Source of the DNA: an uncultured Bacteroides sp.
GTDB taxonomy: Bacteria > Bacteroidota > Bacteroidia > Bacteroidales > Bacteroidaceae
Length of the DNA stretch: 32,445 bases
Direction of reading: 5' to 3'
NCBI GenBank assembly: GCA_944321495.1
Contig: CALULP010000026.1
Span: forward strand, 1-32,445
In this document: in pieces, positions 111 through 20,698 of the stretch
Position numbering within the stretch: the stretch's first letter is position 1
Layout of the letters: each line of letters starts with the position of its first letter
Notes under the pieces: model-generated
Told to the model about the DNA's origin: nothing
Seen by the model: the letters and a program-made list of their open reading frames with translations, nothing else
Databases searched by the model: none
Made by a program: the position numbers and the translations under genes

Positions 111-2466
111 GTCGCGTGGCTTTTCCATTTTTCGACCTGCGGCCCGGTGTCTTTTTACCCGCATTCTTTTCCTCTTGCAGTTTCACCAGTTGCAGGCACG
201 ACTGCAGGCTCAGGTCGGCAGGCTCGATGTCCTTGGGGATTTTGTAGTTATTGCCCTTGTAGGCGATGTAAGGCCCGTAGCGGCCGTTCAGGATTTCCAG
301 TTCCGGTTCTTCCTCAAACTTCTTGATGTGGCGTTTGGCCTCGGCGGCCTGTTTCTCCTGCAACAGGCCGATGGCTTCGTCCAAGGTGACGGTCAGCGGG
401 TCTTGCCCCTTCAGGGATACGTAGGTGCTGCCCGTGTGGATGTAGGGGCCAAAGCGTCCGGCGCCTACGGTGACGGTCTTGCCTTCGTATTCACCCAGGG
501 TGCGGGGCAGTTTGAACAGTTCCAATGCCTCCTCTAAGGTTACGGTTTCCATTGACATGTCCTTACGCAGCTGGGCAAAGCGCGGTTTTTCCGGGTCTTC
601 GGCGGTGCCAATCTGCACCATGGGGCCGAAACGCCCGATTTTTACCGATACCTGCCGTCCGCTGGCGGGGTCGGTGCCCAGCACGCGCTCGCCTGCCCGG
701 TGGGCGCTCTTGGTGGCGATGGCCTTTTCCACCGAGGGGTGGAACTGCTTGTAGAAGGCGCTGAGCACGGCGGTCCATGACTTGTCGCCTTCGGCTATTT
801 CGTCAAACTCTTTTTCTACGGTGGCGGTAAAGTTGTAGTCCAGGATTTCCGGGAAGTATTCGGTCAGGAAGTCGTTGACCACAATGCCGGTGTCGGTGGG
901 CAGCAGCTTCGACTTCTCGGCGCCGTAGGTTTCCGTGCGCGTCTCGTCTTTCAGCTCGTTGCCTTCCAGCGTCAGGATGTTGTAGGGGCGTTCTTCCCCT
1001 TCCTTGTCGCCTTTCACCACATACTCGCGTTGCTGTATGGTGGAGATGGTAGGCGCGTAGGTCGACGGGCGGCCGATGCCCAGTTCTTCCAGCTTGCGCA
1101 CCAAGCTTGCCTCGGTGTAGCGGGGCGGATGCTGGCTGAAGCGCTCTATGGCAGTGATGTCCCGGCGTTCCAGCCGTTGCCCTATGGCAAGGGGCGGCAG
1201 CAGGCGGGTTTCGTCTTCCGGGTTCTCGGCTTCGTCGTCATACGATTCGCGGTACACGCGCAGGAAGCCGTCGAATTTCACCACCTCGCCGCTTGCCGTG
1301 AAGCTGTCTGCCGAGTTGCTGATGCTGATGTTGACCGTAGTCTTCTCTATCTCGGCGTCCGCCATCTGCGAGGCCAGGGTGCGCTTGCGTATCAGGTCGT
1401 AGAGCCGTTTCTCCTGGGCGCTGCCTTCTATCTTCGCCACTTCCATGTAGGTGGGGCGGATGGCTTCGTGGGCCTCCTGCGCGCCTTTGGTCTTGGTGGT
1501 GAAGTGGCGCGGATGCACGTAGCGTTCGCCCATCTTCTTGACAATGGTTTCCTTGCAGCCGTTGATGGCGTATTCTGAGAGGTTCACGGAGTCGGTACGC
1601 ATGTAGGTGATGTTTCCCGATTCGTAGAGCAGCTGTGCCACCCGCATGGTCTGTGCCACGGTGAAGCCCAGTTTGCGTGCGGCTTCCTGCTGTAAGGTCG
1701 ATGTGGTGAACGGCGGCGCAGGGCTTTTCTTCAGCGGCCGGGTCGTGATGTCGGATATGGTGAAAGTGGCCGTGCGGCAGTTTTCCAGCAACTGCATGGC
1801 TTCTTCCTTGGTCTTGATGCGGCGGCCTATTTCGGCTTTCAGTTCGATGGGCTTCCCGTCCTCGCCGGGCACCAGGAAGACGGCGGTGACGCGGTAGGCG
1901 GCTTCGCTGCGGAATGCCTGCACTTCGCGCTCGCGGTCCACGATGAGGCGCACGGCCACCGACTGCACGCGGCCTGCGGACAGGGCGGGCTTCACCTTGC
2001 GCCACAGCACGGGCGACAGCTCGAAGCCCACGATGCGGTCCAGCACGCGGCGTGCCTGCTGGGCGTTCACCAGGTTGAGGTCTATCTGGCGCGGGTGCTC
2101 GATGGCCTTCAGGATGGCGCCCTTGGTGATTTCGTGGAACACGATGCGTTTGGTGTGTTCGGGGTCCAGTCGCAGCACCTCGTACAGGTGCCAGGCAATG
2201 GCTTCTCCCTCGCGGTCCTCATCGGATGCCAGCCACACCGTTTCGGCTTGCCGGGCTTCTTCTTCCAGTTTGGCCACGACTTCTTTCTTGTCGGGCGGAA
2301 TGACGTAAGAGGGGTTGAAATTGTGAGCGACGTCTATGCTGAAGTCCCTTTTCTTCAGGTCGCGGATGTGCCCGTAGCTGGAAAGAACTTTGTAATCTTT
2401 TCCGAGAAACTTCTCGATGGTTTTTGCTTTTGCCGGAGACTCGACAATGACAAGGTTTTTCTGCAT
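106..2466 (-). CDS. topA: DNA topoisomerase I (type IA)
   Basis: This 786-residue type IA topoisomerase relaxes negatively supercoiled DNA through a 5'-phosphotyrosine intermediate. A Toprim domain lies at the N-terminus, with Glu9 in LVIVESPAKA and the acidic SDEDREG motif at 81-87. The active-site tyrosine is Tyr288 in NITYMRTDS. The C-terminus carries three topoisomerase C-terminal repeats with the motifs GRFGPMV, GRFGPYI and GRYGPYI, and it ends in a basic tail. No four-cysteine zinc fingers of the E. coli type are seen, as is usual in Bacteroidetes. The start is the ATG at 2466, 40 bp below a TACTTTTG box. The stop codon TGA falls inside the repeat array at the window edge, so the last residues may have been altered by an insertion. 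Confidence 0.97.
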   Translation of the reverse strand: MQKNLVIVESPAKAKTIEKFLGKDYKVLSSYGHIRDLKKRDFSIDVAHNFNPSYVIPPDKKEVVAKLEEEARQAETVWLASDEDREGEAIAWHLYEVLRLDPEHTKRIVFHEITKGAILKAIEHPRQIDLNLVNAQQARRVLDRIVGFELSPVLWRKVKPALSAGRVQSVAVRLIVDREREVQAFRSEAAYRVTAVFLVPGEDGKPIELKAEIGRRIKTKEEAMQLLENCRTATFTISDITTRPLKKSPAPPFTTSTLQQEAARKLGFTVAQTMRVAQLLYESGNITYMRTDSVNLSEYAINGCKETIVKKMGERYVHPRHFTTKTKGAQEAHEAIRPTYMEVAKIEGSAQEKRLYDLIRKRTLASQMADAEIEKTTVNISISNSADSFTASGEVVKFDGFLRVYRESYDDEAENPEDETRLLPPLAIGQRLERRDITAIERFSQHPPRYTEASLVRKLEELGIGRPSTYAPTISTIQQREYVVKGDKEGEERPYNILTLEGNELKDETRTETYGAEKSKLLPTDTGIVVNDFLTEYFPEILDYNFTATVEKEFDEIAEGDKSWTAVLSAFYKQFHPSVEKAIATKSAHRAGERVLGTDPASGRQVSVKIGRFGPMVQIGTAEDPEKPRFAQLRKDMSMETVTLEEALELFKLPRTLGEYEGKTVTVGAGRFGPYIHTGSTYVSLKGQDPLTVTLDEAIGLLQEKQAAEAKRHIKKFEEEPELEILNGRYGPYIAYKGNNYKIPKDIEPADLSLQSCLQLVKLQEEKNAGKKTPGRRSKNGKATRL

Positions 2467-2506
2467 AAATTACGGTTTAATGGTGCCCACAGCACTGAGT
2501 TTGCCG

Positions 2507-2514
2507 CAAAAGTA
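2507..2514 (-). promoter_or_regulatory. topA promoter -7 box (TACTTTTG)
   Basis: The minus strand reads TACTTTTG, a full match to the Bacteroides -7 consensus TAnnTTTG, 40 bp upstream of the topA ATG. No clear TTTG -33 element is seen at the usual spacing. Confidence 0.55.
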
Positions 2515-2600
2515 AGGAAAAAAGATACGTCCGGCCTTATATTGAAAGAGATTTTAGCAAAAAAATGTGTTAGGGCTATTTTTTACAGTTCCGGCACAGA

Positions 2601-2706
2601 CCTTCCCCTTACCTTCTCCTTACCCGCTCCTTATCTCCTCCTTTTGTCCGTTTGCCCTATGGAAAGGAAAAAGAGCGGACAAGGCAGGGTGAAGGTAAGG
2701 GTAAGG
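2601..2706. repeat. Dispersed structured repeat, copy A
   Basis: Positions 2608-2689 match 31432-31513 without gaps at about 75 of 82 bases. This copy is bounded by inverted arms at 2601-2613 (CCTTCCCCTTACC) and 2694-2706 (GGTAAGGGTAAGG), complementary at 12 of 13 positions. A second, inner stem joins TTGTCCG (2644-2650) to CGGACAA (2676-2682). It lies between topA and the beta-barrel gene. No reading frame in it is convincing. Confidence 0.75.
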
Positions 2707-2762
2707 CAGGGTGGGGAGAGAGGCTTTGTTTGTACAATTGTTTGACGGAGGGCGGGTGTATC

Positions 2763-4397
2763 TTAGAAGCGGATGCTGGCGCCGGCTGTGAAGTTGAACC
2801 CTTCGGCGGGATAGCCGGGATAGTACTGGTAGTCCTTGCCCAGCAGGTTGCCGATGCGGAGGTGTGCCGAAAGTATCTTCAGGAACTCGTAGCTGCCGCC
2901 CAGGTAGAGGTCGGTCACGGGGTCGGCTTTCACGCCGTTGTACCTGTCGCGGGTGACGGACCGGTAGCCGATGTGTACGCGCAGCGGGCTGATGGGGTGG
3001 ACGTCTATGCGGGCATCGGCCTCGAGGACAGGCTTGAATGCCAGCACGTAGAGGTCTTCGCCTTGCCCGGATGCCGACCACCGGCGGTAGGTGCCCTGCG
3101 CGGTGAAGGCGATGAGGTCGCGGTAGTCGTAGCTGATTTCCGCGCCGGCATACAGGTTGGCGGTGTCCCAGGTACCCAGCGTGAAAGTGTAATTCCCGTC
3201 GGCGGGCAGGGCTGTATAGAGGTCGTCTTCCAGGTTCTGATAGCCGCCGTACAGGTGCAGGTGGAAGCCGCCCAGGGTGCCTGTCTTGAACCCGATGGCG
3301 GCATTCAGTTGCTCGTAGGTGGCGGCAGGTTGGGCGGTGGCTTGCGCGTAGGGGTTGAAGCGTTCCAGGCGACGGAAATCGTTTTGCAGTTCGCCGCCCT
3401 TGGCTTGCAGGTAGACGGCACTCCGGGCAAAGCGGTAGGCGGCATAGATGTCGGGCGACACGCGGAACCGGTTGCCGAAGCCGAATGTCGGGTCGGCATG
3501 GACGCCCAGGTGGAATGCCCAGGCCTTGTTGTCGAAACGGTAGTAAGGGTTGAACCCGATGGAGGTGTGGTTGCTGAACGGGTTGTTGCGGTAGAAGAGG
3601 TTATCCATGCCGGCCCGTATGCCGATGGTCTGCTCGTCGGAAAGGCTTCCGGTGACGTGGGCCTTGGTGCGTGCCATGACTTCCTGTACATCGGTGAAAC
3701 TGACTTCATGCTGGCGTTGGTAGAACATCAGGTTGGTTTCGGCCTGGAATTGCAGGGGCAGGTCTTTGGCGGTAGAGGCTATGCCTATATGGAAGTCGCC
3801 CGCCGTGAACCGCTGTTTGTGGTCGGCTGCCCCGGGTAGGAAGTTGAAGTTGCTCAGGTCGAAATGCCCGGCAATGTCCATATCCACCTGGCGGAATGCG
3901 TGCCGGTAGTCCAGCTTTGCATGGGTGTGGTAGAAGTATGAATTCCACTTACTTGTGCTGCCGGGCAGGTCCAGCTTGCCGTCCATGCCGTCCATGCGGA
4001 ACGTCAGGTTGAGGCGGTCTTTCGGGGAGAGGCTGAACAGGTAGTTGGCGCGGATGTCGAGGTTGCCGTAGTTGCCGTAGCCCAGGCGCAGGTAGCCGGG
4101 GGTGGCTTTCGGGAGTGCCTGCCTGCCGGTGTAGGCAGGCATGTTTCCGGCGGGGATGTCGGCGAGCGGTTGCAGGCGGTTGTCGTATTCCACGGCTTTG
4201 GGTTGCACCACGGGGGCTTCGACGGCGGGTACGGCATTGACTTTGGCGGCGTCCCGGATGTCGGGGGTATATTCTTGCTCGACCACGACGGTGCGGTTCA
4301 GCGTGGTGTCTTGGGGCAGCGTTTGTGCCGGGCTTTTGGCCGGCAGTGCGGCAAGCATTAAGGCCGCGAGGGTGATAGTCCGTATGGTTTTCATCAT
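2763..4397 (-). CDS. TonB-dependent-receptor-like outer-membrane beta-barrel protein
   Basis: This 544-residue protein has an N-terminal signal peptide ending near SPAQ (residues 22-25). A proline- and valine-rich linker of about 60 residues follows. The rest is a long series of alternating aromatic/polar strands with short turns, ending in an aromatic residue (SIRF), which is the outer-membrane beta-barrel signature. There is no recognisable TonB plug domain and no carboxypeptidase-like N-terminal domain, so it is probably not a classical TonB receptor despite barrel similarity. Two adjacent ATG codons (4397, 4394) can serve as start. It lies 41 bp downstream of the large TPR gene on the same strand, so the two are probably co-transcribed and may act together in the envelope. 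The substrate is unknown. Confidence 0.75.
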   Translation of the reverse strand: MMKTIRTITLAALMLAALPAKSPAQTLPQDTTLNRTVVVEQEYTPDIRDAAKVNAVPAVEAPVVQPKAVEYDNRLQPLADIPAGNMPAYTGRQALPKATPGYLRLGYGNYGNLDIRANYLFSLSPKDRLNLTFRMDGMDGKLDLPGSTSKWNSYFYHTHAKLDYRHAFRQVDMDIAGHFDLSNFNFLPGAADHKQRFTAGDFHIGIASTAKDLPLQFQAETNLMFYQRQHEVSFTDVQEVMARTKAHVTGSLSDEQTIGIRAGMDNLFYRNNPFSNHTSIGFNPYYRFDNKAWAFHLGVHADPTFGFGNRFRVSPDIYAAYRFARSAVYLQAKGGELQNDFRRLERFNPYAQATAQPAATYEQLNAAIGFKTGTLGGFHLHLYGGYQNLEDDLYTALPADGNYTFTLGTWDTANLYAGAEISYDYRDLIAFTAQGTYRRWSASGQGEDLYVLAFKPVLEADARIDVHPISPLRVHIGYRSVTRDRYNGVKADPVTDLYLGGSYEFLKILSAHLRIGNLLGKDYQYYPGYPAEGFNFTAGASIRF

Positions 4398-4438
4398 GTA
4401 TGTGCTATGGTGTGTTGGATAAAGTCTGTTTCCCGGGG

Positions 4439-7400
4439 TTATTCGTTGCCGGTGGTTTCTGCATTTCCGGTTTGTCCAAGCTTGTCGAGCCGTTGCTGTA
4501 TCATGCCGGCAATGTCGTCATCGGCCTGGTAATTCTGTTGCAGGCTCAGCAGGTATTGGCGGGCGTCGAGGTTCTTGCCGGTTGCCATGTAGATGTCTGC
4601 CAGCAAGACGAAGCTGCGTGCCAGCCAGTAGGCGTGCGGGGTGCTTTGGTCGATGAAGTCCAGCACTTCTTTTTCGGCTGCGGCGTAGTCGCCTGCTTCA
4701 TACTGTTGGTTGGCGATGAGGTATTTGGCTTCGGCTCCGTAGAGGGTGCGGGTATCCTTGGCCAGCGGCTCCAGGTCGGCAAGGGCTTTGGCGCCGGCTT
4801 TCTGGCTGAGGTAGGCTTTGGCGCGGTCGTACAGGGCTTCGTCACGCCGCTCGGGCGACAGTTTGCCTTCGGCCAGCAGGGCGGTGGCGGCGTGGATGGT
4901 TTCGGCGTCATCGTGCATCAGCGTGCCGCAGCGCAAGGCGCCCAGCAGTCCCAGTTGGCGGTGTTCGGCGGTGGTGGCTTTGGCTTGCAGTTGCTTGTAG
5001 TCTGCCAAGGCCTGCGGGTATTGTTGCCGGTTGAACAGCACCTCGCCGCGCATCAGCAGCACTTCTTCGGTGTAGGGGCTGTCGGGGTATTCCAGCAGTC
5101 GGGAGGCATGTTGCAGCAGGTCGTCGTCGTTTTTCTCCTTCTTTGCAATGACGCACAGGCGGTAGTGTGCATTGAGGCGGAAGGCCCCGTCGGGATAGCT
5201 TTGTAGGTAGCGGTTGAGGCTGCTCTTTGCGGCGGCGGTTTCTCCTTTCATGTACACTCTTTCGGCGGCAGTGTAGGTCAGCGAGTCTTGTTCGGTGGGG
5301 TCGAAAGGAATGTTGCCGGGCAGTTGTGCGGCAAGGGCGGCAAACTCGTCCACGCGGTTGGCGTCGACGTAAATGGATTTAAGGTCGCGCATGGCGAGCC
5401 GTGCTTCTTCGCTGCCCGGGTAGCGGGTGATGACTTGCTTGTAGGCATCGATGGCCTGGTCGTAGTTGCCTGCCTGGTAGTAGAGCAATCCGATTTCGGC
5501 GGCTGCCTTCCGGCTGACGGGGCTTTGCGGGTATTTGTCCAGCAGCTGGCGGAAGGTGGCGATGGCGCGTGTGCTGTTGTCGCTTTGCACGTAGGAGCGC
5601 CCTTTCTCGTACAGCGCATTGACGTTGTAGGGCGATTGCGGATAGCGTGCCGCCAGGCGGTCGAGCAGGGCAATCTTGCCGTCGTAATCCTTTTGCAGTC
5701 CTGCCACCAGCGCCAGCTGGTAGAGCGAGTAGTCGCCCGAGGACGTGCCGAGGCGTTCCGCCCGTGTGTAGTATTGGTCGGCTTCGTTGAAGAGGCGGCT
5801 TTGCAGGTAGCAGTCGCCTATGCGGTTGCAGGCATCGGCTTGGAGGGTGGCATCTTCTTCCCGTCCTGCTTGCAGGAAGCGGAGGAATTGTGTCCTTGCG
5901 GCGTTGTAATCTTTCCGGTGGAAAGCGATGTAGCCCAGGTTGTAGTGGGCAAGGGCGACTGTTTTCCCGTTTTTGTCGGGGGTGGCGGACAGGTAGTCGT
6001 TGAAGCAGCGTTCGGCTTGCGGCATCTGTCCCAGGCGGTAGAGCGATTCGCCTTCCCAATAGATGGCGTTGCAGAGGATGTCGCGGGCGGCATTGCCCAG
6101 GGCAGAGGCGGTGGAGCGTGCTTCACGGAAGCGCGTGAGGGCTTGCGTGAAGTCGGTGTTGGCAAAACTCTGCGCGCCCAGTTGGAACAGTATGCGCGCT
6201 TGGGCTTTCCGTATCTGGGGGGTGGGGGCTTTGATGCGCTCGATGGAGGCAAGGGCGGCATCGTAGCTGCGGGTGCTCATGTACACGTCTACCAGGTAAC
6301 TGCTTACGCGGTCGGCATAGGCGGAGCCGGGGAAGTCGTTCAGGAATTTCTCGAATGCAGTGACCGATTCGCCGAAGGCGGAATAAGAGGTGTCATGGAT
6401 GCAAAGGATGTAGTTGTAGGCAGCCTGCTCCTGCACTTGCGGGTCGGCATTGTAGGCGGCAGCCTGCTCGAATGCCATGCGTGCCTGGGCCTTGTCGCCC
6501 ATTTGCAGGTGGGCAAGCCCCATGTGCAGGTAGGCGTTTTGGGCAAGGGTATCGTTGCCTATTGCCACTTCGCCGAGCAGTCCGGGCACCTGCGAGAAGG
6601 CGCCGCACCGGTAGCATGCCATGCCGTACATGTAGAGGGCGTCGCGGCGGGGCGTGCCTCCGGTGTTGTCTTGCAGGTATTGCGCGAAGCTGTTCATGGC
6701 TTCGCGGTACTTGCCGTAGTGGTAGCAGGCACTGCCTTCGATGCGGTGCATCTCGGCGGCGCGGGCTTCTCCGGGCCAGGCGGAAAGGTAGTTCTGGGCC
6801 ACGATTTCCGCTTTGTCGTAGTTGTTCCTTTGCAGGTAGATTTCGGCGATGTAATAAGGCACAAGCTTTTCGTAGGTTTCATCGGCCTGGAGGGAGAGGA
6901 AGCCTGCCAGCGCTTCGTCGTAGCGCCCTTGGGTGTAGCGGATGTAGGCAAGGTAGTACGTGCAGTCGGCTTCGTAGCGTGTGGCGGTGCTTCGCAGGGT
7001 TTCCAGCCAGATGGCGGCTTCTTGCAGGTTGCCCGTCTTCAGGTAGCTGACGGCCAGGCGGAAGGTCATGTCATCGCGTTCGGCGGCGGGCAGCAGCCCG
7101 AGGTCGGCCAGGCGGAAGGCCTGTACGGCCTCTGCATAGTCGCCTTGGGCAAAGTACACGGATGCCAGCAGAGCATGGATGCGGTTGGCGTGCGGCGTGT
7201 CGGGGTATTGGGAGAGGAAGGCCTGCAGGTTCTCCATGCATTGGTCGTCCTGAAGTTCGTAGGAGGTGCAGGCGAGCATGTAGGCCGCCTCTTGCCGCCG
7301 GGAGGCAGAGGGTAACGGCGCGTTTTCGGCATCGGTTTGCCGCAGGTAAGCCTGCAAGGGGGCGATGGCGGCGGTGTAGGCTTTCTGGCGGAACAGGGCG

Positions 7401-7516: not shown

Positions 7517-7563
7517 GACAGGTAGTCTGTTGTGTGGGTTAGGTATGCGTAATGGTTGTCCGG

Positions 7564-7571
7564 CAAAGATA
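7564..7571 (-). promoter_or_regulatory. Promoter -7 box (TATCTTTG) of the TPR/beta-barrel operon
   Basis: The minus strand reads TATCTTTG, matching TAnnTTTG, 47 bp upstream of the TPR protein start. No good -33 TTTG is seen. Confidence 0.5.
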
Positions 7572-7610
7572 CGCTTTAAGGACGCAGCTTGTTGCGCCGG
7601 TTGTGTTTTT

Positions 7611-8135
7611 TTAGGAAATGGTGGCCAGCCAGCGTTGCAGTCCTTTGCGGATGGAGCCTAACCCGAAATCCTCGGGGCGGATGTCGGCAAAAGGCAGGAA
7701 GAAGGCATCGGCAACATCGTCCATGGCATGGAAGTGCGTGGTGCCGGCCACGGTACAGCGGAAGAACAGGTCGAGCGTGTGCACCTGGAAGCCGGAGTAC
7801 AGGTAGAGGTTGGGCAGGGAAAAGAGGTATTCGGCCTTCAGCACTTCCAGCCCTGTCTCTTCGCGCACTTCGCGTGCCACGCCTTCCTCGCCCGTTTCAA
7901 ATAGGTCGATGAAGCCGCCGGGCAGGTCGAGCGTCCCTTTGGCGGGGTCTTTGGCGCGGCGGCACACCAGCAGTTCGTCCCGCTCGTTGGTGATGAGGGC
8001 GACGGTGGAGGCGGACGAGTTGAAGTAGTACGTGAAGCCGCAGTCGGCGCATTGTTTGGACTTGAAGTTGTGTATCTCGAAGCGGGGCGAGCCGCACTTG
8101 GGGCAGTAGTGGAAAAGTGAAAGCGGATGTTCCAT
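7611..8135 (-). CDS. NUDIX hydrolase with N-terminal zinc ribbon
   Basis: This 174-residue enzyme is predicted to hydrolyse nucleoside-diphosphate-X substrates. The Nudix box is complete: a Gly at the start of GGFIDLFE, then seven residues, then REVREETGL, which fits GX5EX7REUXEEXGU. The N-terminus has two CxxC pairs (CPKCGS and CADCGF), a zinc ribbon like that of NudC-type NADH pyrophosphatases and related short Nudix proteins. The ATG at 8135 (MEHPLSLFHYCPKCG) is preferred over a start at 8222, because the extra upstream residues overlap the promoter and look non-coding. The exact substrate cannot be told from sequence alone. Confidence 0.9.
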   Translation of the reverse strand: MEHPLSLFHYCPKCGSPRFEIHNFKSKQCADCGFTYYFNSSASTVALITNERDELLVCRRAKDPAKGTLDLPGGFIDLFETGEEGVAREVREETGLEVLKAEYLFSLPNLYLYSGFQVHTLDLFFRCTVAGTTHFHAMDDVADAFFLPFADIRPEDFGLGSIRKGLQRWLATIS

Positions 8136-15196: not shown

Positions 15197-16696
15197 TTAT
15201 TTTCTCAGCCGTGCCACCGGTATGTTCATTTGCTGGCGGTATTTCGCTATGGTGCGCCGGGCAATGGGATAACCTTTCTGCTTCAGGATTTCGGTCAGTT
15301 CATCGTCGGTGTACGGTTTCTTCTTGTCTTCGTTGTCAATGCACTCCTTCAGTATGCGGCGTATTTCGCGCACCGACATTTCCTCGCCGCTCTCCGTGGT
15401 GTAGCCGTCGTTGAAGAAGAACTTCAGCGGATAGATGCCGTAGTTGGTCTGCACGTACTTGCTGTTGCTCACCCGCGAGATGGTGGATATGTCCAGCCCT
15501 GTGCGTTCCGCCACGTCTTTCAGAATCATGGGGCGCAACAACGACTCGTCGCCCTCCTGGAAGAAAGGCCGTTGCAGGTCGATGATGGCCTGCATGGTGG
15601 TGAGCAGGGTGTTTTGCCGTTGCTTGATGGCGTCGATGAATCCCTGCGCCGCATCGATTTTCTGTTTGAGGAACATCATCGCCTCCCTTGATTCCTTCGA
15701 TTGGTTGGCGCGGTTCTTGGTATGTTCTTCCAGCATCTCGGTAAAGTCGCGGTTCATACGCAGTTCGGGCACGTTGCGGTTGTTCAGGGTCAGGCTGATG
15801 GTGCCGTCGTCGTAGGTATCTACGAGGAAGTCGGGCACTATCTGCTGCATGTTTTTGCCGATGGTTTCCCCCATCGAGGCGCCCGGGCGCGGGTTCAGCC
15901 GGCAGACCTCGCGGATGGCCTGTTCGCACAAGTCTTCGCCGATGCCGAGCTTTTGCTGTATCTTGTCCCAATGTTTGCGGGTGAATTCTTCGTAGCAGTC
16001 CGCCACGATGGCCTCTTCTGCCTTCAGCAACGACAGGTCGGCGCCTTTCGGCTGTTGCTCCATCTTGCGGCGGATTTGTATCAGGAGGCACTCTTGCAGG
16101 CTTTGCGCGCCCAGTCCGGGCGGGTCGAAGCTTTGGATGACGTGCAGGGCCTCTTCCAGTTCCTGCGGGGTGGTTTCGATGCCGGCATAGATGGCCAGCT
16201 CGTCGCTGATGCTGTCCAGCGACTTGCGCAGCAGCCCGTCGTCGTCCAGCGAACCGATTAAGTATTCTGCCAGCGTGCGTTGGTGCTCGCTCAGGTCGTG
16301 TTCGCCCAGCTGCTCTTTCAAGGTTTCGTAAAACGAGGTGCTGTCCGAGAACGGGATTTCCTCCGGGCGCTCGTCGCGGCTCCAGTTGTTCTCCTGCAGT
16401 TTGTAGTCGGGGATGTCGTCCTCCGTCAGGTAGTCGCCCAGCGAGTCGTAGCCGGTATCTCCTCCGTCTTCCGGGCTTTCGGTTTCCGTGTCCGGGGTGT
16501 CGTCGGCATAGTCATTATCGGCGGTGGCTTCTTTGCCTTCCTCCAAGGCGGGATTTTCCAGCAGTTCGGCACGCACTCGGTCTTCCAGTTCCACGGCAGG
16601 CAGCTCCAGCAATTTCACCGCCAAAATCTGTTGCGGCGACAATGTCTGGATTTGCTGTTGCGTCTGCGTCTGTATCTGTCGGGAAGCCTGTGCCAT
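15197..16696 (-). CDS. rpoN: RNA polymerase sigma-54 factor
   Basis: This 499-residue alternative sigma factor directs RNA polymerase to -24/-12 promoters and needs an AAA+ enhancer-binding activator. Region I is glutamine-rich (QTQTQQQIQTLSPQQ at about 9-23) and is followed by the LLELPAVELEDRV segment. An acidic region II lies at about 50-110. The core-binding domain and helix-turn-helix follow, and the RpoN box ARRTIAKYR lies close to the C-terminus. No enhancer-binding protein is in the window. The start ATG at 16696 is 18 bp below a TACTTTTG box, implying a very short leader. Confidence 0.97.
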   Translation of the reverse strand: MAQASRQIQTQTQQQIQTLSPQQILAVKLLELPAVELEDRVRAELLENPALEEGKEATADNDYADDTPDTETESPEDGGDTGYDSLGDYLTEDDIPDYKLQENNWSRDERPEEIPFSDSTSFYETLKEQLGEHDLSEHQRTLAEYLIGSLDDDGLLRKSLDSISDELAIYAGIETTPQELEEALHVIQSFDPPGLGAQSLQECLLIQIRRKMEQQPKGADLSLLKAEEAIVADCYEEFTRKHWDKIQQKLGIGEDLCEQAIREVCRLNPRPGASMGETIGKNMQQIVPDFLVDTYDDGTISLTLNNRNVPELRMNRDFTEMLEEHTKNRANQSKESREAMMFLKQKIDAAQGFIDAIKQRQNTLLTTMQAIIDLQRPFFQEGDESLLRPMILKDVAERTGLDISTISRVSNSKYVQTNYGIYPLKFFFNDGYTTESGEEMSVREIRRILKECIDNEDKKKPYTDDELTEILKQKGYPIARRTIAKYRQQMNIPVARLRK

Positions 16697-16832: not shown

Positions 16833-17858
16833 TTAAAATGTGATACGTACAATGTCCGTCCCCCCTTCTTCGTTGTTGGCAATGGCATAAAGACAGTTCC
16901 CGTCAGGCGTTAGGGCAATCTGGCTTAAATCGCGGTCGGTCTGTATGGATTTTAAAAGATTGCCTTCCCAGTCAAATTGCAGAATCTTGGAACATGTGCC
17001 TTGAGTATTTGCCGGGTAACCGTTGTAGAGGATATAAAGGCATTCTTGATTCCCTGTAAGTGAAAGGACATATTTATTCGCTTGGGGGAAATCCAGAAAC
17101 TGAGGGTCTGCTTCAGGCCATATCCTTTCCGTGCCTATTACAACTTCTTTCAACAGCTCACCTTGCAAGTCAAAGAAAAACAGACTGTTCAAGTTGTTCA
17201 TGGTGCGGCAGATTCCTCGTTCCGGGTGGAGCAGCAGATTCCCGGTGAACAGAAAGGGAATATGCGTGTCCGGGTATTTGCTTTTCAGCTGTTTTTCATC
17301 CCAATAGCGGATGTCCTTGACTTTTTGTTTGTTTTTGTCATAGATAAAGAACAGGTATTCGGGTGAATCGATGTTCGTGCCGTAAATGCATAAGTCTGTT
17401 TCCGCATAGTCTTGCATCATCGGTACGATGGGAAGCCTGGTGGTGTTCAGGTGGATTCTTGTTGACCGGGTCGGATTTATTTCTCTGAGGCTCCAGGCAT
17501 TGACATCTGTCATTTTTATGTTTCCTCCCTTTTGAACAATCTCACGTGTGAAGAAGGGTAGGATGAGGTCATCCGGTCCTTGCCCCTTGGTCGCATATCG
17601 GGCCATAACGGGAAAGCTTGTTTGCGGATATGCCTTTAAGATGGTGTCATTGTAAAAATCCAGGCAATAGAGGAAAGAGTCATCGGCGCAAATATTATAG
17701 AACATATTCAGCCCGCTGCCTTCCCGTATGAACGGTTCCGTTTGAATACTGTCTATGGCAGGGTTTGTAACGAAGCATGCCTCATGATTCGTTTTAGAGG
17801 AGCAGGCGGATAGAAATAAAGATATGCAGAGTAAAAAAAATGGGCTGTTCCGTTTCAT
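16833..17858 (-). CDS. Six-bladed beta-propeller (BF3164-like) lipoprotein
   Basis: This 341-residue protein has a lipoprotein signal with lipobox LSAC (Cys19), so it is predicted to be lipidated. The mature part has repeated beta-rich units with features of the BF3164-like / 6-bladed propeller family: an N-terminal 'FIREGSGLNMFYNICADDSF' blade, YATKGQGPDD, and a C-terminal blade with LTPDGNCLYAIANNEEGG. In Bacteroides such genes are often next to NVEALA peptide genes, as here. The role is unknown. Propellers of this fold bind ligands or peptides. The ATG at 17858 begins a proper signal peptide. The upstream start at 17927 would add an atypical extension. It is separated from the NVEALA gene by 138 bp containing a hairpin. 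Confidence 0.8.
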   Translation of the reverse strand: MKRNSPFFLLCISLFLSACSSKTNHEACFVTNPAIDSIQTEPFIREGSGLNMFYNICADDSFLYCLDFYNDTILKAYPQTSFPVMARYATKGQGPDDLILPFFTREIVQKGGNIKMTDVNAWSLREINPTRSTRIHLNTTRLPIVPMMQDYAETDLCIYGTNIDSPEYLFFIYDKNKQKVKDIRYWDEKQLKSKYPDTHIPFLFTGNLLLHPERGICRTMNNLNSLFFFDLQGELLKEVVIGTERIWPEADPQFLDFPQANKYVLSLTGNQECLYILYNGYPANTQGTCSKILQFDWEGNLLKSIQTDRDLSQIALTPDGNCLYAIANNEEGGTDIVRITF

Positions 17859-17893
17859 TATATGGCTGTTTGTATGGCATAATGTGATGAAAA

Positions 17894-17955
17894 GGCATAA
17901 ACTTTTAGACACACGTTTTTTATACAAAAAATGAGTGTTTTTTTAAGTTTATGCC
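17894..17955 (-). terminator. Attenuator-like hairpin between the NVEALA gene and the propeller gene
   Basis: A perfect 11-bp inverted repeat, GGCATAAACTT (17894-17904) and AAGTTTATGCC (17945-17955), encloses 40 nt that themselves contain ACAC/GTGT complementarity. On the minus strand the stem is followed by TTTTC. It lies downstream of the NVEALA stop (17997) and upstream of the propeller ATG (17858). It may terminate part of the transcripts or stabilise the 3' end of the peptide mRNA. Confidence 0.55.
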
Positions 17956-17996
17956 AGTTGCTTGCTTTTACTTAATTTTCCGTTGAGAAAATATTA

Positions 17997-18290
17997 TTAT
18001 CCATTTCTACAAGTACCATCTTGTGTCGCATTTCTTAAAAGAGTCATATGACACGTTCCATCAGAATATCTATAACGCAACAATGTTCCTCCACTACCAG
18101 TTGTTCCTTTATATGCTTGGTAGGTAGAAGGAGGATTTGTTTCCGATTGTCCAAGTGCTTCTATGTTTTCTAACGTTAATTCATCAATAGTAGAAACAGA
18201 TGCGTTTTGAGCTACAAACATAACATACCCTACGATTGCGGCGAATGCTATAACAAAGGATACTTTAAAAAATTTTTTCTTCATAATCAT
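17997..18290 (-). CDS. NVEALA-type secreted peptide precursor
   Basis: This 97-residue protein (95 from the second ATG at 18284) has a lysine-rich N-terminus and one hydrophobic segment (about 9-28). The hallmark segment LTLENIEALGQ follows, equivalent to the 'LANVEALA' motif that names the family. The C-terminal half is small, polar and glycine-rich, with two cysteines in GTCHM and DGTCRNG. Such precursors are found in Bacteroidales next to propeller lipoproteins, and their biological role is unknown to me. It begins 13 bp after the thioredoxin-like gene, so co-transcription is likely. Codon use is AT-rich compared with the flanking housekeeping genes. Confidence 0.82.
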   Translation of the reverse strand: MIMKKKFFKVSFVIAFAAIVGYVMFVAQNASVSTIDELTLENIEALGQSETNPPSTYQAYKGTTGSGGTLLRYRYSDGTCHMTLLRNATQDGTCRNG

Positions 18291-18303
18291 AAATTTTAAG
18301 TTG

Positions 18304-18852
18304 TTATTGGATGAGTTTCAAGTATAGCTCTTTTATTTTTATGTTATAAATAGGATTCCCAATGCCTATTACTTTATTATGTTTGTCTAACAAGAATGTG
18401 TGATATTGTTCTTCCTTAGGAACTTGATTGAGCTTATCAAATTCATTTTGTTCATCTATACAAATGGGGTGAGTAAAACTTTTGAAAAAAAGTAAATTCT
18501 CAACTTCTTTCCGATTTTTTGGATGTATGTATAATAAAAGTAGAACATTAGGTTTTGCTGGGTCTTGAATAATTTCTTGCATTAGACCTTCCCAACGGGC
18601 AAATTCTAATTTACAACTTAAGCATCCAACGGAATCTACATATGAAACAATTTTATAGTCTGTTATGGGAAAACTGTAATCTATAGAGTCTTTGCCTTCT
18701 ATTGTAAAAATAGAATTGGTAGGGAAAAGTATTTCTTTGCTTTTCCATTTACTGACTATATGGTTCCCTGTAGCGGTAGTCTGGTTGCATGAGGTTAAAG
18801 CTAAAGAAATACCAAATACTATTGTAAGATAAATTATGGGATGTTGTTTCAT
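18304..18852 (-). CDS. Thioredoxin-fold lipoprotein with GCLSC motif
   Basis: This 182-residue protein begins with a lipoprotein signal (lipobox LTSC, Cys22). A CxxC pair, Cys77 and Cys80 in SVGCLSCKLE, sits after a predicted beta-strand (YKIVSYVDS). A strand-helix pattern follows (NVLLLLYIHP), and the C-terminal HTFLLDKHNKVIGIGNPI resembles the final beta-strands of AhpC/TlpA-like thioredoxins. The usual cis-Pro position is not clear. It is the first gene of the AT-rich cluster with the NVEALA peptide and the propeller lipoprotein. A redox or disulfide role for the two-cysteine peptide is attractive but is inference. Confidence 0.65.
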   Translation of the reverse strand: MKQHPIIYLTIVFGISLALTSCNQTTATGNHIVSKWKSKEILFPTNSIFTIEGKDSIDYSFPITDYKIVSYVDSVGCLSCKLEFARWEGLMQEIIQDPAKPNVLLLLYIHPKNRKEVENLLFFKSFTHPICIDEQNEFDKLNQVPKEEQYHTFLLDKHNKVIGIGNPIYNIKIKELYLKLIQ

Positions 18853-18869
18853 GTTTTTGTATTTAGATA

Positions 18870-18899
18870 CAAAAATAAATAATATTTTTAGAATAGAAA
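18870..18899 (-). promoter_or_regulatory. Promoter of the thioredoxin-like/NVEALA cluster
   Basis: On the minus strand a TTTC (18899-18896) is followed after 18 bp by TATTTTTG (18877-18870), a full match to TAnnTTTG. The box ends 17 bp upstream of the ATG at 18852. Confidence 0.5.
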
Positions 18900-19075: not shown

Positions 19076-20698
19076 TCAATAGTCGTTCTGGTTGATAGCA
19101 CCCTGTGAAGCTTCGATTTCGCTTTGCGGGATGGGCAGATATTTCTTGTTTTCCGTCCATGCCGGGCGTTGCGGAATAGCGGTACCCGGTTCGCTATATG
19201 TCATCGTTGCTTTATCTTCCAAGATTACACCGCCACCAGCAGTCAATACCTGTGCAGCCATACCGCTACGTACCAAGTCGAAGTAACGTTTGCCTTCGCC
19301 GACAAATTCAAGGCGACGCTCATTGATGATGTTCTCTTTGTTCAGAGGCAGTGGTTGCAAGCCTGCGCGCTCACGTACGCGGTCAAAATAGCGCTGTGCC
19401 TCGGCATCGCCCAGTGCCAGGCCCAGCTCGGCGGCATTCAGCAGCGTTTCGGCAAAGCGGTAGATGTGCAGGTTATTATCCCAACCCAGGTCGGTGGAAG
19501 CGGTAGCCCCCTCGTTGCCGCCGGGACGGCCCAAGTATTTGCGCAGGAAGTAGCCGGTGTTCTGGAAACGGCCTGCATAAGTGACCTTGATGCCCCGGGC
19601 GGCCATGTCTTCAATGTATTTGTAGATGTTCAGGATGGCTACGTCGCGGCGCAAGTCGCCTTCTTCAAAGGCATCGTAGGCTTCCTTGGATACAGTTCCG
19701 AAGCCGTAGCCGCCTATCGAGAATTCGGCATAGGGGCCGTCTATTGTGCCAATGTTGGTACCGTTGTAGTTCAGCCCTGCAACGCCGATCATGGTGGGGA
19801 ATACGGTACCGCCGGGGGCGTTGGCGCTTCCCCAGTCGCGGCTGCTGCCCTTGGAGGCATAATTGATGTCCAAGATGATTTCCTTCGTCCATTCCGTGGT
19901 GTAAGAGAACAGCTGGTCGTAGTCGGCGCCGTCTACCAGGTCATACTGCGTGGAGTTGATGATTTCCTTCATGTAGTTCAACGCTTTCTGGTAGCGGATC
20001 TGGTCTTTCTGGTACATGACGAGTTCCGCGTACATCATGTAGACGGCGGCCTGTGTCATGCGGCCTGCCCATTCGTCGGGTTGCTTCATGGGCAGGATGT
20101 TCATGTCGATGACGCCTTCCAGGTCGGTAACGATGGCCTCGTACACTTCATCTGCCGATTTCTGTTCGGCAATGTACGGGAAGGTAAGGTTTTCCATGTA
20201 GAACGGAATGTTTCCCCACGTCTTCCACAGGCAGAGGTAGTACCAGGCGCGCAACGCCCTGCCTTCTGCAATGTACAGGTTCTTGTCTGCCTCGGGCAGG
20301 TCGGACGCGGTGGCGTTGTCAATTAAGCGGATGGAGCGGTTGATGCCTGAATAATTGGCCGACCAGAATCCGCCAATGGTGTTGTTCGGGTCGGAATCGT
20401 AGCGGGAAATCAGGTACAGGTATCCCTGGTCATCTTTATTACTTCCGCCGGCATACATGTCATCGGCCTGGATGTCCCACATCAGGTTTATCGGGCACCA
20501 GCCACTGAAGTAGTCATACCAGTGCATGGGGTCGTAAGCGGCTACGGCAGATTCCATGATGCGGGCATCCGTCGTATAATATCCATCGATGGAAACACTG
20601 CTTGCCGGTTCTTCCGTCAGGAAACCTTCACCGCAAGAGGACAATCCCAGGGTAAGGGTTGCGGCAGCAGCTAAGCTGTATAATTTGTATTTTTTCAT
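19076..20698 (-). CDS. SusD/RagB-family outer-membrane lipoprotein
   Basis: This 540-residue protein is a surface glycan- or nutrient-binding partner of a SusC transporter. A lipoprotein signal ends in LSSC (Cys22) and is followed by the EGFLTEEPASS segment typical of SusD N-termini. The helical TPR-like core is present (AEGRALRAWYYLCLWKTWGNIPF). The C-terminal signature INERRLEFVGEGKRYFDLVRSG and the LPIPQSEI ending are intact. The gene is complete, in contrast to the broken susC 21 bp upstream. No glycoside hydrolase, sulfatase or peptidase is adjacent, so the substrate cannot be guessed. Confidence 0.95.
   Translation of the reverse strand: MKKYKLYSLAAAATLTLGLSSCGEGFLTEEPASSVSIDGYYTTDARIMESAVAAYDPMHWYDYFSGWCPINLMWDIQADDMYAGGSNKDDQGYLYLISRYDSDPNNTIGGFWSANYSGINRSIRLIDNATASDLPEADKNLYIAEGRALRAWYYLCLWKTWGNIPFYMENLTFPYIAEQKSADEVYEAIVTDLEGVIDMNILPMKQPDEWAGRMTQAAVYMMYAELVMYQKDQIRYQKALNYMKEIINSTQYDLVDGADYDQLFSYTTEWTKEIILDINYASKGSSRDWGSANAPGGTVFPTMIGVAGLNYNGTNIGTIDGPYAEFSIGGYGFGTVSKEAYDAFEEGDLRRDVAILNIYKYIEDMAARGIKVTYAGRFQNTGYFLRKYLGRPGGNEGATASTDLGWDNNLHIYRFAETLLNAAELGLALGDAEAQRYFDRVRERAGLQPLPLNKENIINERRLEFVGEGKRYFDLVRSGMAAQVLTAGGGVILEDKATMTYSEPGTAIPQRPAWTENKKYLPIPQSEIEASQGAINQNDY

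What the first reader, a model, noticed from the sequence alone, without database searches (positions are those of the whole stretch)
16833..18899. AT-rich three-gene cluster: thioredoxin-fold lipoprotein, NVEALA-type two-cysteine peptide and propeller lipoprotein
Three consecutive minus-strand genes encode two predicted lipoproteins and a small secreted precursor. The precursor has a hydrophobic leader, the LTLENIEALGQ motif and a C-terminal tail with exactly two cysteines. One lipoprotein has a CxxC thioredoxin-like centre and the other is a beta-propeller. The first two genes are only 13 bp apart and are visibly more AT-rich than the housekeeping genes around them, suggesting transfer. Known: NVEALA-type genes sit beside propeller lipoproteins in Bacteroidales, with no function I know of. 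Inferred: the peptide could be exported, oxidised or held by the CxxC protein, and bound or displayed by the propeller.
Basis: partly seen in the sequence, partly recalled or inferred. Interest (0 to 1): 0.75.

Follow-up and report, generated by a model that had tools for sequence, protein, structure and literature searches.

The report
Secreted disulfide peptides with propeller partners
This three-gene cassette belongs to a widespread, apparently undescribed system of gut Bacteroidales in which a small peptide is predicted to be exported, probably gets its disulfide bond from the enzyme-like protein encoded beside it, and is likely bound by its own matching propeller protein, perhaps as a weapon with built-in self-protection.

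Summary
The minus strand holds TRX (182-aa CxxC lipoprotein, thioredoxin fold), NV (97-aa NVEALA precursor, two cysteines in its tail, 13 bp downstream) and PROP (341-aa propeller lipoprotein), in the most AT-rich block of the window. The neighbourhood is not chance: in a scan anchored on TRX relatives, 65 of 67 new loci have an NVEALA gene and 67 of 67 a propeller within 4 kb. The cassette is part of a larger system. NVEALA precursors share a leader, and their tails ('cores') are hypervariable with mostly even cysteine numbers (112 of 137, then 123 of 138). When cores match between genomes, the propeller next door matches too (0 of 2000 permutations); the leader does not follow. A conserved-core class sits beside a membrane transcription factor (26 of 30, against 16 of 108 other peptides). 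A signal peptidase, a transglutaminase-like lipoprotein and an O-antigen-ligase-like protein recur nearby; this genome has the first two on contigs C10 and C33, the third on C33. Best reading: exported disulfide peptides, oxidised by TRX, each with a cognate propeller, most likely toxin plus immunity; signal plus receptor is the close rival. No function is tested; no paper on NVEALA was found in the library searched.

The parts
18304..18852 (-). TRX: thioredoxin-fold lipoprotein, 182 aa, CxxC; window copy lacks the C-terminal DUF1573 domain that many relatives carry
   Evidence: ORF; CxxC cysteines invariant in the 41 aligned sequences; AlphaFold pLDDT 89.9; best PDB matches ResA and StoA; StoA also by profile, E 3.4e-4
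18613..18624 (-). CxxC centre of TRX (residues 77-80, Cys-Leu-Ser-Cys)
   Evidence: sequence
17997..18290 (-). NV: NVEALA-family precursor peptide, 97 aa
   Evidence: PF14055 43.6 bits, cut-off 27
18150..18290 (-). leader of NV: positively charged start, hydrophobic stretch, LTLENIEALG motif (predicted cleavage after EALG)
   Evidence: sequence; motif positions across 137 peptides; hydrophobic stretch found in 129 of 137, ending a median of 20 residues before the motif end
18000..18149 (-). core of NV: 50 aa, two cysteines, net charge +2
   Evidence: core conserved in the ortholog P0014 (35 of 42 residues from STY on, against 14 of 32 in the first part of the leader; counted by eye)
16833..17858 (-). 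PROP: propeller lipoprotein, 341 aa, lipobox Cys19, about 25 strands
   Evidence: TolB_like PF15869 26.0 bits, below its cut-off 29.2; the 98% identical P0001 is listed with PF15869; AlphaFold pLDDT 90.8; PDB matches are propellers
17894..17955 (.). inverted repeat (28-nt arms, 75% complementary) between NV and PROP; possible attenuator or terminator
   Evidence: role not tested

Best explanation
The window holds one cassette of a modular peptide system: the NVEALA leader is predicted to take the precursor through the inner membrane and to be cut after EAL(A/G), the neighbouring CxxC lipoprotein would make or reshuffle the disulfide bond of the released core, and the propeller lipoprotein is likely the core's own binding partner, most likely serving as immunity to a bacteriocin-like peptide. 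Shown by sequence: a shared leader on hypervariable cores; an excess of even cysteine numbers; co-inheritance of core and propeller but not of leader and propeller; the near-constant neighbourhood of TRX, NV and PROP; a conserved-core peptide class beside a membrane winged-helix regulator; recurrent S26 signal peptidase, transglutaminase-like and O-antigen-ligase-like genes, present in this genome on contigs C10 (first two) and C33 (all three). Inferred: that the dedicated signal peptidase cuts the leader, that TRX acts on these peptides, that core and propeller touch, that the propeller faces the periplasm, that the conserved-core peptide is the inducer read by the regulator, and that the purpose is competition. 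My estimate: exported disulfide peptide with cognate propeller about 0.75; competition as the purpose about 0.4; signalling about 0.3.
For: TRX-NV association: against (10 of 11; NV 65 of 67, PROP 67 of 67), control (0 of 8). NV is the next classified gene after TRX in 42 of 67 loci, the window's order. Even cysteines: 112 of 137 (77 of 93 after removing similar cores, p 5e-11 against one half); 123 of 138 in the second set. Core-propeller coupling: without the conserved class, 34 inter-genome pairs with core similarity of at least 0.3 have mean propeller similarity 0.406 against 0.082 permuted, 0 of 2000; best-match rank 31 of 34 tests against 4.7 expected; with unlike leaders 20 of 22 against 3.4. 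Second set: 72 pairs, 0.509 against 0.158, 0 of 1000; with unlike leaders 27 of 36 against 9.7. Leader-propeller rank correlation is -0.014 between genomes. Conserved class with REG as nearest upstream gene: 16 of 17 against 7 of 107 (contig edges left out), second set 26 of 30 against 16 of 108. REG has at least two membrane helices in 20 of 20. S26 peptidase, ligase and transglutaminase. Propellers without an NVEALA gene just upstream are common (51 of 155 and 76 of 198 away from contig edges); variable peptides without a propeller as next gene are rarer (18 of 110), which suits immunity. Precedent: bacteroidetocin loci hold a disulfide peptide and a thiol oxidoreductase; the paper reasons that the oxidoreductase makes the bonds because Bacteroides lack the general machinery (PMC6671954, passages).
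Against: Cores average a net charge of -1.8, unlike cationic antimicrobial peptides. Over all inter-genome pairs core and propeller similarity correlate only weakly (0.087); the coupling rests on the minority of pairs whose cores match, and core and propeller are adjacent genes, so linkage alone can give part of it. Regulator-propeller groups without a peptide close by (L118, L119, L121) suit receptors as well as immunity. The stretch from hydrophobic segment to motif (median 20 residues) is long for an ordinary signal-peptidase site, so the leader may stay as an anchor. Eight TRX-like loci (L122-L127, L129, L131) have no NV gene, though L126 and L127 keep SPase and TGL; 2 of 67 loci (L194, L213) have none within 4 kb. 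Eight genomes of other families of the order had no Pfam NVEALA hit, though TRX-anchored loci with NV do occur in Parabacteroides, Tannerella, Petrimonas and Proteiniphilum.
Confidence: 0.45

Rival explanations
1. Peptide signalling: the cores are pheromones, each propeller is the periplasmic receptor for its own core, and the membrane winged-helix regulator passes the signal on.
For: Conserved-core peptide beside a sensor-type membrane regulator; regulators beside propellers even without peptides close by (L118, L119, L121); acidic average charge of cores; conserved core in the window's ortholog.
Against: Only 7 of 107 variable peptides have the regulator as nearest upstream gene, and the window's locus has none; long arrays of different pairs in one genome look more like an arsenal than a signal.
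Confidence: 0.3
2. Membrane-tethered adaptor: the leader is not cut and anchors the disulfide core in the inner membrane, where it holds or positions its propeller; no peptide is released.
For: Long spacer between hydrophobic stretch and motif; core and propeller co-inherited.
Against: Recurrent S26 signal peptidase beside these genes and small residues at -3 and -1 of EAL(A/S/G) (my search pattern allowed only small residues there, so this is partly built in).
Confidence: 0.12
3. Chance or ordinary cluster: a lipoprotein, a redox protein and a small secreted protein that happen to lie together on acquired AT-rich DNA.
For: The block is AT-rich.
Against: 65 of 67 and 67 of 67 neighbourhoods; core-propeller coupling.
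Confidence: 0.02

Closest known systems
NVEALA family, Pfam PF14055
   Same: The window peptide scores 43.6 bits, cut-off 27.
   Different: The Pfam line shown gives the family no function; the paired propeller, the regulator-linked class and the processing genes are not part of the family definition.
Bacteroidetocins (bacteriocins of Bacteroidetes, proposed class IIf, PMC6671954)
   Same: Small peptide, at least two cysteines, thiol oxidoreductase in the same locus.
   Different: Bacteroidetocins have a short 15-16 aa leader ending in GG and an ABC transporter/peptidase; the window's precursor has a hydrophobic 47-aa leader without GG, and its kind has a recurrent S26 signal peptidase and a propeller partner.
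Pheromone-regulated bacteriocin loci of Gram-positives (plantaricin, blp; recalled)
   Same: An inducer-like peptide and variable peptides share one leader, beside a membrane regulator.
   Different: Leader, sensor and partner proteins are of other families; induction is not tested.
ToxR/CadC membrane transcription factors
   Same: OmpR/CadC/ToxR-type winged helix in a membrane protein.
   Different: Order reversed (ToxR/CadC order recalled): membrane helix, outer domain of roughly 160-175 residues, second helix, then C-terminal winged helix.
ResA/StoA thiol-disulfide oxidoreductases
   Same: Fold and CxxC.
   Different: Own family with a YVDS-x-GCxxCK-like centre, often fused to DUF1573, tied to NVEALA loci.

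Membership tests
NVEALA (PF14055) | profile score above gathering cut-off | tested here: met
   43.6 bits against 27
TolB-like propeller (PF15869) | profile score above gathering cut-off | tested here: not met
   26.0 against 29.2 bits for the window protein; the 98% identical P0001 is listed with PF15869
beta-propeller fold | all-strand propeller fold | tested here: met
   model pLDDT 90.8, about 25 strands; PDB propellers at E down to 4.5e-10
thioredoxin-like thiol-disulfide oxidoreductase | thioredoxin fold with CxxC at the start of a helix | tested here: met
thioredoxin-like thiol-disulfide oxidoreductase | redox activity on a substrate | not testable with these tools
   needs protein chemistry
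bacteroidetocin | 15-16 aa leader cut after GG | tested here: not met
   window leader is 47 aa, hydrophobic, ends EALG with no GG; definition from PMC6671954 passages
bacteroidetocin | ABC transporter/peptidase gene in the locus | tested here: inconclusive
   none recognised among the recurrent neighbour clusters listed; rarer neighbours were not annotated one by one
bacteroidetocin | thiol oxidoreductase gene in the locus | tested here: met
   TRX, by fold and CxxC
bacteroidetocin | kills Bacteroidales | not testable with these tools
   needs assay
toxin-immunity pair | two adjacent genes co-inherited as a matched pair | tested here: met
   (adjacency and coupling only, not protection)
toxin-immunity pair | peptide toxic, partner protects | not testable with these tools
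   needs assay

The most novel reading that the evidence does not exclude
Bacteroidales carry an undescribed peptide system in which a conserved inducer peptide, read by a two-pass membrane transcription factor, switches on arrays of hypervariable disulfide peptides that share one leader, one dedicated signal peptidase and one redox lipoprotein, each peptide carrying its own propeller lipoprotein as private receptor or immunity.
Probability: 0.4. Interest if true: 0.92.

Novelty: new variant of a known kind. Interest (0 to 1): 0.76.

Why it matters
NVEALA genes occur in common gut genera (Bacteroides, Phocaeicola, Parabacteroides) and in Tannerella forsythia, with 17 to 20 matches in three genomes, and no function was found in the papers searched. 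The pairing of hypervariable disulfide peptides with cognate propellers gives a direct, testable hypothesis of how gut Bacteroidales compete or talk, and would give a role to several families of unknown-function lipoproteins at once. It also offers substrates for dedicated disulfide-forming proteins in bacteria said to lack the general machinery (PMC6671954).

Tried and rejected
Chance clustering was rejected. The membership claim for bacteroidetocins was rejected (no GG leader). Surface display by the propeller is not supported: 8 of 123 propellers with a lipobox (of 166) have two or more acidic residues at +2 to +6; the rule is recalled and I ran no positive control, so this is weak. A reading of the cores as cationic antimicrobials is not supported (mean charge -1.8). 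A genome-contig scan with the window TRX alone gave 0 loci; an alignment of 28 was too diverse; nine close sequences gave 78 loci. The profile of TRX over 151 genomes hits 150 of 151, most of the listed weaker hits through the DUF1573 part alone, so its tally is not used. The REG and TGL profiles were built from loci chosen for having NVEALA, so they are partly circular; of 23 full-length REG hits that I read off, 17 lie within 3 kb of an NVEALA hit and 6 do not. A sigma-70-type scan found fewer promoter-like sites than shuffles (4 against 7.4), and a recalled Bacteroides promoter pattern had no match near the cassette. The pattern used to place the leader end allows only small residues at -3 and -1, so that part is built in.

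My walk lists 11 of 119 variable peptides without any propeller downstream and 9 at contig edges; at least three of the 11 (in L072, L090, L109) have a propeller overlapping the frame, so the true number is lower. The conserved-core class was defined after seeing the first set; the second set is its test, with a slightly widened pattern, and its 'variable' group still holds Parabacteroides peptides of the same kind without the proline, which also enter that call's coupling test.
Full report
What is in the window. On the minus strand, between a RagB/SusD-like gene (19076-20698) and rpoN (15197-16696), lie TRX (18304-18852), NV (17997-18290) and PROP (16833-17858). Gaps are 13 bp (TRX-NV) and 138 bp (NV-PROP). 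TRX is a lipoprotein with C77-L-S-C80; the cysteines are invariant in the 41 aligned sequences. Its AlphaFold model (pLDDT 89.9) matches ResA and StoA, and a profile of the family finds StoA by sequence (E 3.4e-4). NV matches Pfam NVEALA at 43.6 bits; it has a 47-aa leader ending LTLENIEALG and a 50-aa core with two cysteines. PROP is below the TolB_like cut-off itself (26 of 29.2 bits) but models as a propeller of about 25 strands (pLDDT 90.8). The block is AT-rich: 0.378 GC against 0.550 for the window. In this genome the NVEALA-associated genes are generally AT-rich (NV mean 0.388, n=10; TRX 0.360, n=5; PROP 0.410, n=16; other called ORFs of at least 150 aa in the same stretches 0.557, n=55), while one SPase and one TGL on contig C10 have ordinary GC (0.59, 0.57).

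The genome has more. The host assembly (2.74 Mb, 45 contigs) has 10 NVEALA matches, 9 of them over the cut-off and one with a stop inside. Two same-genus relatives have contigs of the same lengths as records of Bacteroides acidifaciens and Bacteroides sp. GM023, so the genus is Bacteroides by inference. The window TRX finds five copies here. Four, the window's included, lie near NVEALA genes; the fifth, on contig C33, stands in a run PROP-TRX-S26 signal peptidase-O-antigen ligase-transglutaminase-like protein with no NVEALA gene. Of the S26 peptidases in this genome, those on C10 and C33 belong to this system; a pair on C8 and a weak hit elsewhere on C10 do not lie with it.

Neighbourhoods. 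I fetched 67 stretches around NVEALA or TRX hits in this genome and its relatives; with the window that makes 68, holding 145 NVEALA frames, some of them pieces of broken genes. Clustering the called genes gave seven recurrent neighbours: two propeller clusters, TRX, TGL, S26 peptidase (SPase), membrane regulator (REG) and ligase (OLIG). Those stretches were chosen mostly for having NVEALA, so the counts there are descriptive. Two tests are less biased. First, the window TRX alone as query in 21 genomes: 11 hits, 10 within 3 kb of an NVEALA hit. Second, a scan of genome contigs with nine TRX sequences: 78 loci, 67 after removing those already seen; NV within 4 kb in 65 of 67, a propeller in 67 of 67, REG in 40, TGL in 33, SPase in 25, OLIG in 13. 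The nine query sequences come from NVEALA loci, and the listing kept the best 80 of 109 candidates, so very different TRX relatives would be missed. As a control, 0 of 8 AhpC-TSA genes of this genome lie near an NVEALA gene. Against the rule: among 20 further stretches fetched for TRX, REG or TGL hits, mostly without a Pfam NVEALA hit close by, 8 contain an NVEALA-like frame by my profile and 12 do not.

Leader and core. In the larger arrays leaders are nearly identical and cores mostly unrelated: within genomes the mean normalised similarity is leader 0.641, core 0.131. Cores have a median of 39 aa. Cysteine numbers are even in 112 of 137, in 77 of 93 after removing similar cores, and in 123 of 138 in the second set, tested against one half. 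That is what disulfide-bonded peptides in an oxidising compartment would show. The window peptide and its one distinct relative (P0014, 67% identity; P0013 is the window's own) differ most in the first part of the leader (14 of 32 residues equal) and least in the motif (13 of 13) and core (35 of 42 from STY on), counted by eye.

Core and propeller go together. In 99 peptide-propeller pairs from 27 genomes, strong inter-genome core matches predict propeller similarity, although over all pairs the rank correlation is weak (0.087). Leaving out the conserved-core class (90 pairs left), 34 comparisons with core similarity of at least 0.3 have mean propeller similarity 0.406, permuted 0.082, 0 of 2000; the adjacent propeller is the best match in 31 of 34 tests against 4.7 expected; with leader similarity below 0.5 it is 20 of 22 against 3.4. 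In the second set (96 pairs, 44 organisms) 72 comparisons give 0.509 against 0.158, 0 of 1000. Leaders do not predict propellers (Spearman -0.014 between genomes). Linkage can add to this, but the leader is in the same gene as the core and does not follow.

Two peptide classes. A conserved core of the kind C-x-G-x-G-S-x-D-C-P....K-V sits beside REG: 16 of 17 assessable against 7 of 107 (Fisher p 7e-14), replicated 26 of 30 against 16 of 108. REG has a membrane helix near the start and another near residues 185-256 in 20 of 20; one of them shows a third. It ends in a winged helix of OmpR/CadC type. The window's peptide is of the variable class, with no REG beside it.

Mechanism. Leader: predicted Sec-type export and cleavage after EAL(A/G), perhaps by the S26 peptidase encoded elsewhere in the genome (inferred). 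TRX: thiol-disulfide oxidoreductase for the core (inferred; [quoted passage not shown] PROP: cognate binding partner (supported by co-inheritance, binding not shown). Purpose: I lean to competition with the propeller as immunity, because propellers without a peptide just upstream are common (51 of 163, with 8 of the 163 not assessable at contig edges; 76 of 204, with 6 not assessable), variable peptides without a propeller as next gene are rarer (18 of 110 away from edges, 11 of them with none further on), pairs are hypervariable and in long arrays, and an array lies on a record labelled plasmid of Phocaeicola massiliensis (OY726023.1). Signalling is close behind, because of REG, the acidic cores and the regulator-propeller groups without peptides.

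Literature. 'NVEALA' occurs in 0 papers of the library; PF14055 in 5, by their titles on Plasmodium or enzyme models (listing only). Searches for propeller, DUF1573 and combinations listed nothing that I recognised as this system. PMC10434189 (passages) lists BT0662, an O-antigen ligase family protein, and BT0664, a 6-bladed beta-propeller, among iron-dependent genes of B. thetaiotaomicron, possibly the same system. PMC10352776 (passages) surveys RiPP clusters of Bacteroidales; in the passages shown, most of its precursors have GG-type leaders, and signal peptidase, propeller, thioredoxin and transglutaminase are not mentioned in its main text. The library lacks most subscription papers and holds no bioRxiv preprints, so absence there is not proof.

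Noticed in passing
L058 (G000:C33:1-9000), 224-6360: Run PROP-TRX-S26 signal peptidase-O-antigen ligase-transglutaminase-like, without an NVEALA gene; GC 0.35-0.41 in a GC-rich genome. Candidate processing genes for the window's peptide.
   Followed up: partly
L118, L119, L121: Regulator genes beside propellers in other genomes, with no peptide gene close by (L121 has an NVEALA-like frame further off): possible receptor or immunity arrays.
   Followed up: no
window 17894-17955: Inverted repeat with 28-nt arms between NV and PROP; could uncouple expression of peptide and propeller.
   Followed up: no
L139 (OY726023.1, Phocaeicola massiliensis, plasmid record): REG, TRX, five NVEALA genes and propellers in one array on a record labelled plasmid.
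   Followed up: partly
L095, L096, L097: A three-gene set (124, 114 and 593 aa) that looks like an IS66-type element (recalled, not searched) lies inside the NVEALA arrays of one genome.
   Followed up: no
L013 (G000:C6), about 7560-7700: NVEALA match with an in-frame stop, without its own propeller downstream: a likely remnant.
   Followed up: no
Parabacteroides loci: Some peptides there have a GSVDC-like core without the proline, so the conserved class is probably wider than my pattern.
   Followed up: no
L167, L181: Records titled Lachnospiraceae and Clostridia carry the system; most likely mis-binned contigs.
   Followed up: no
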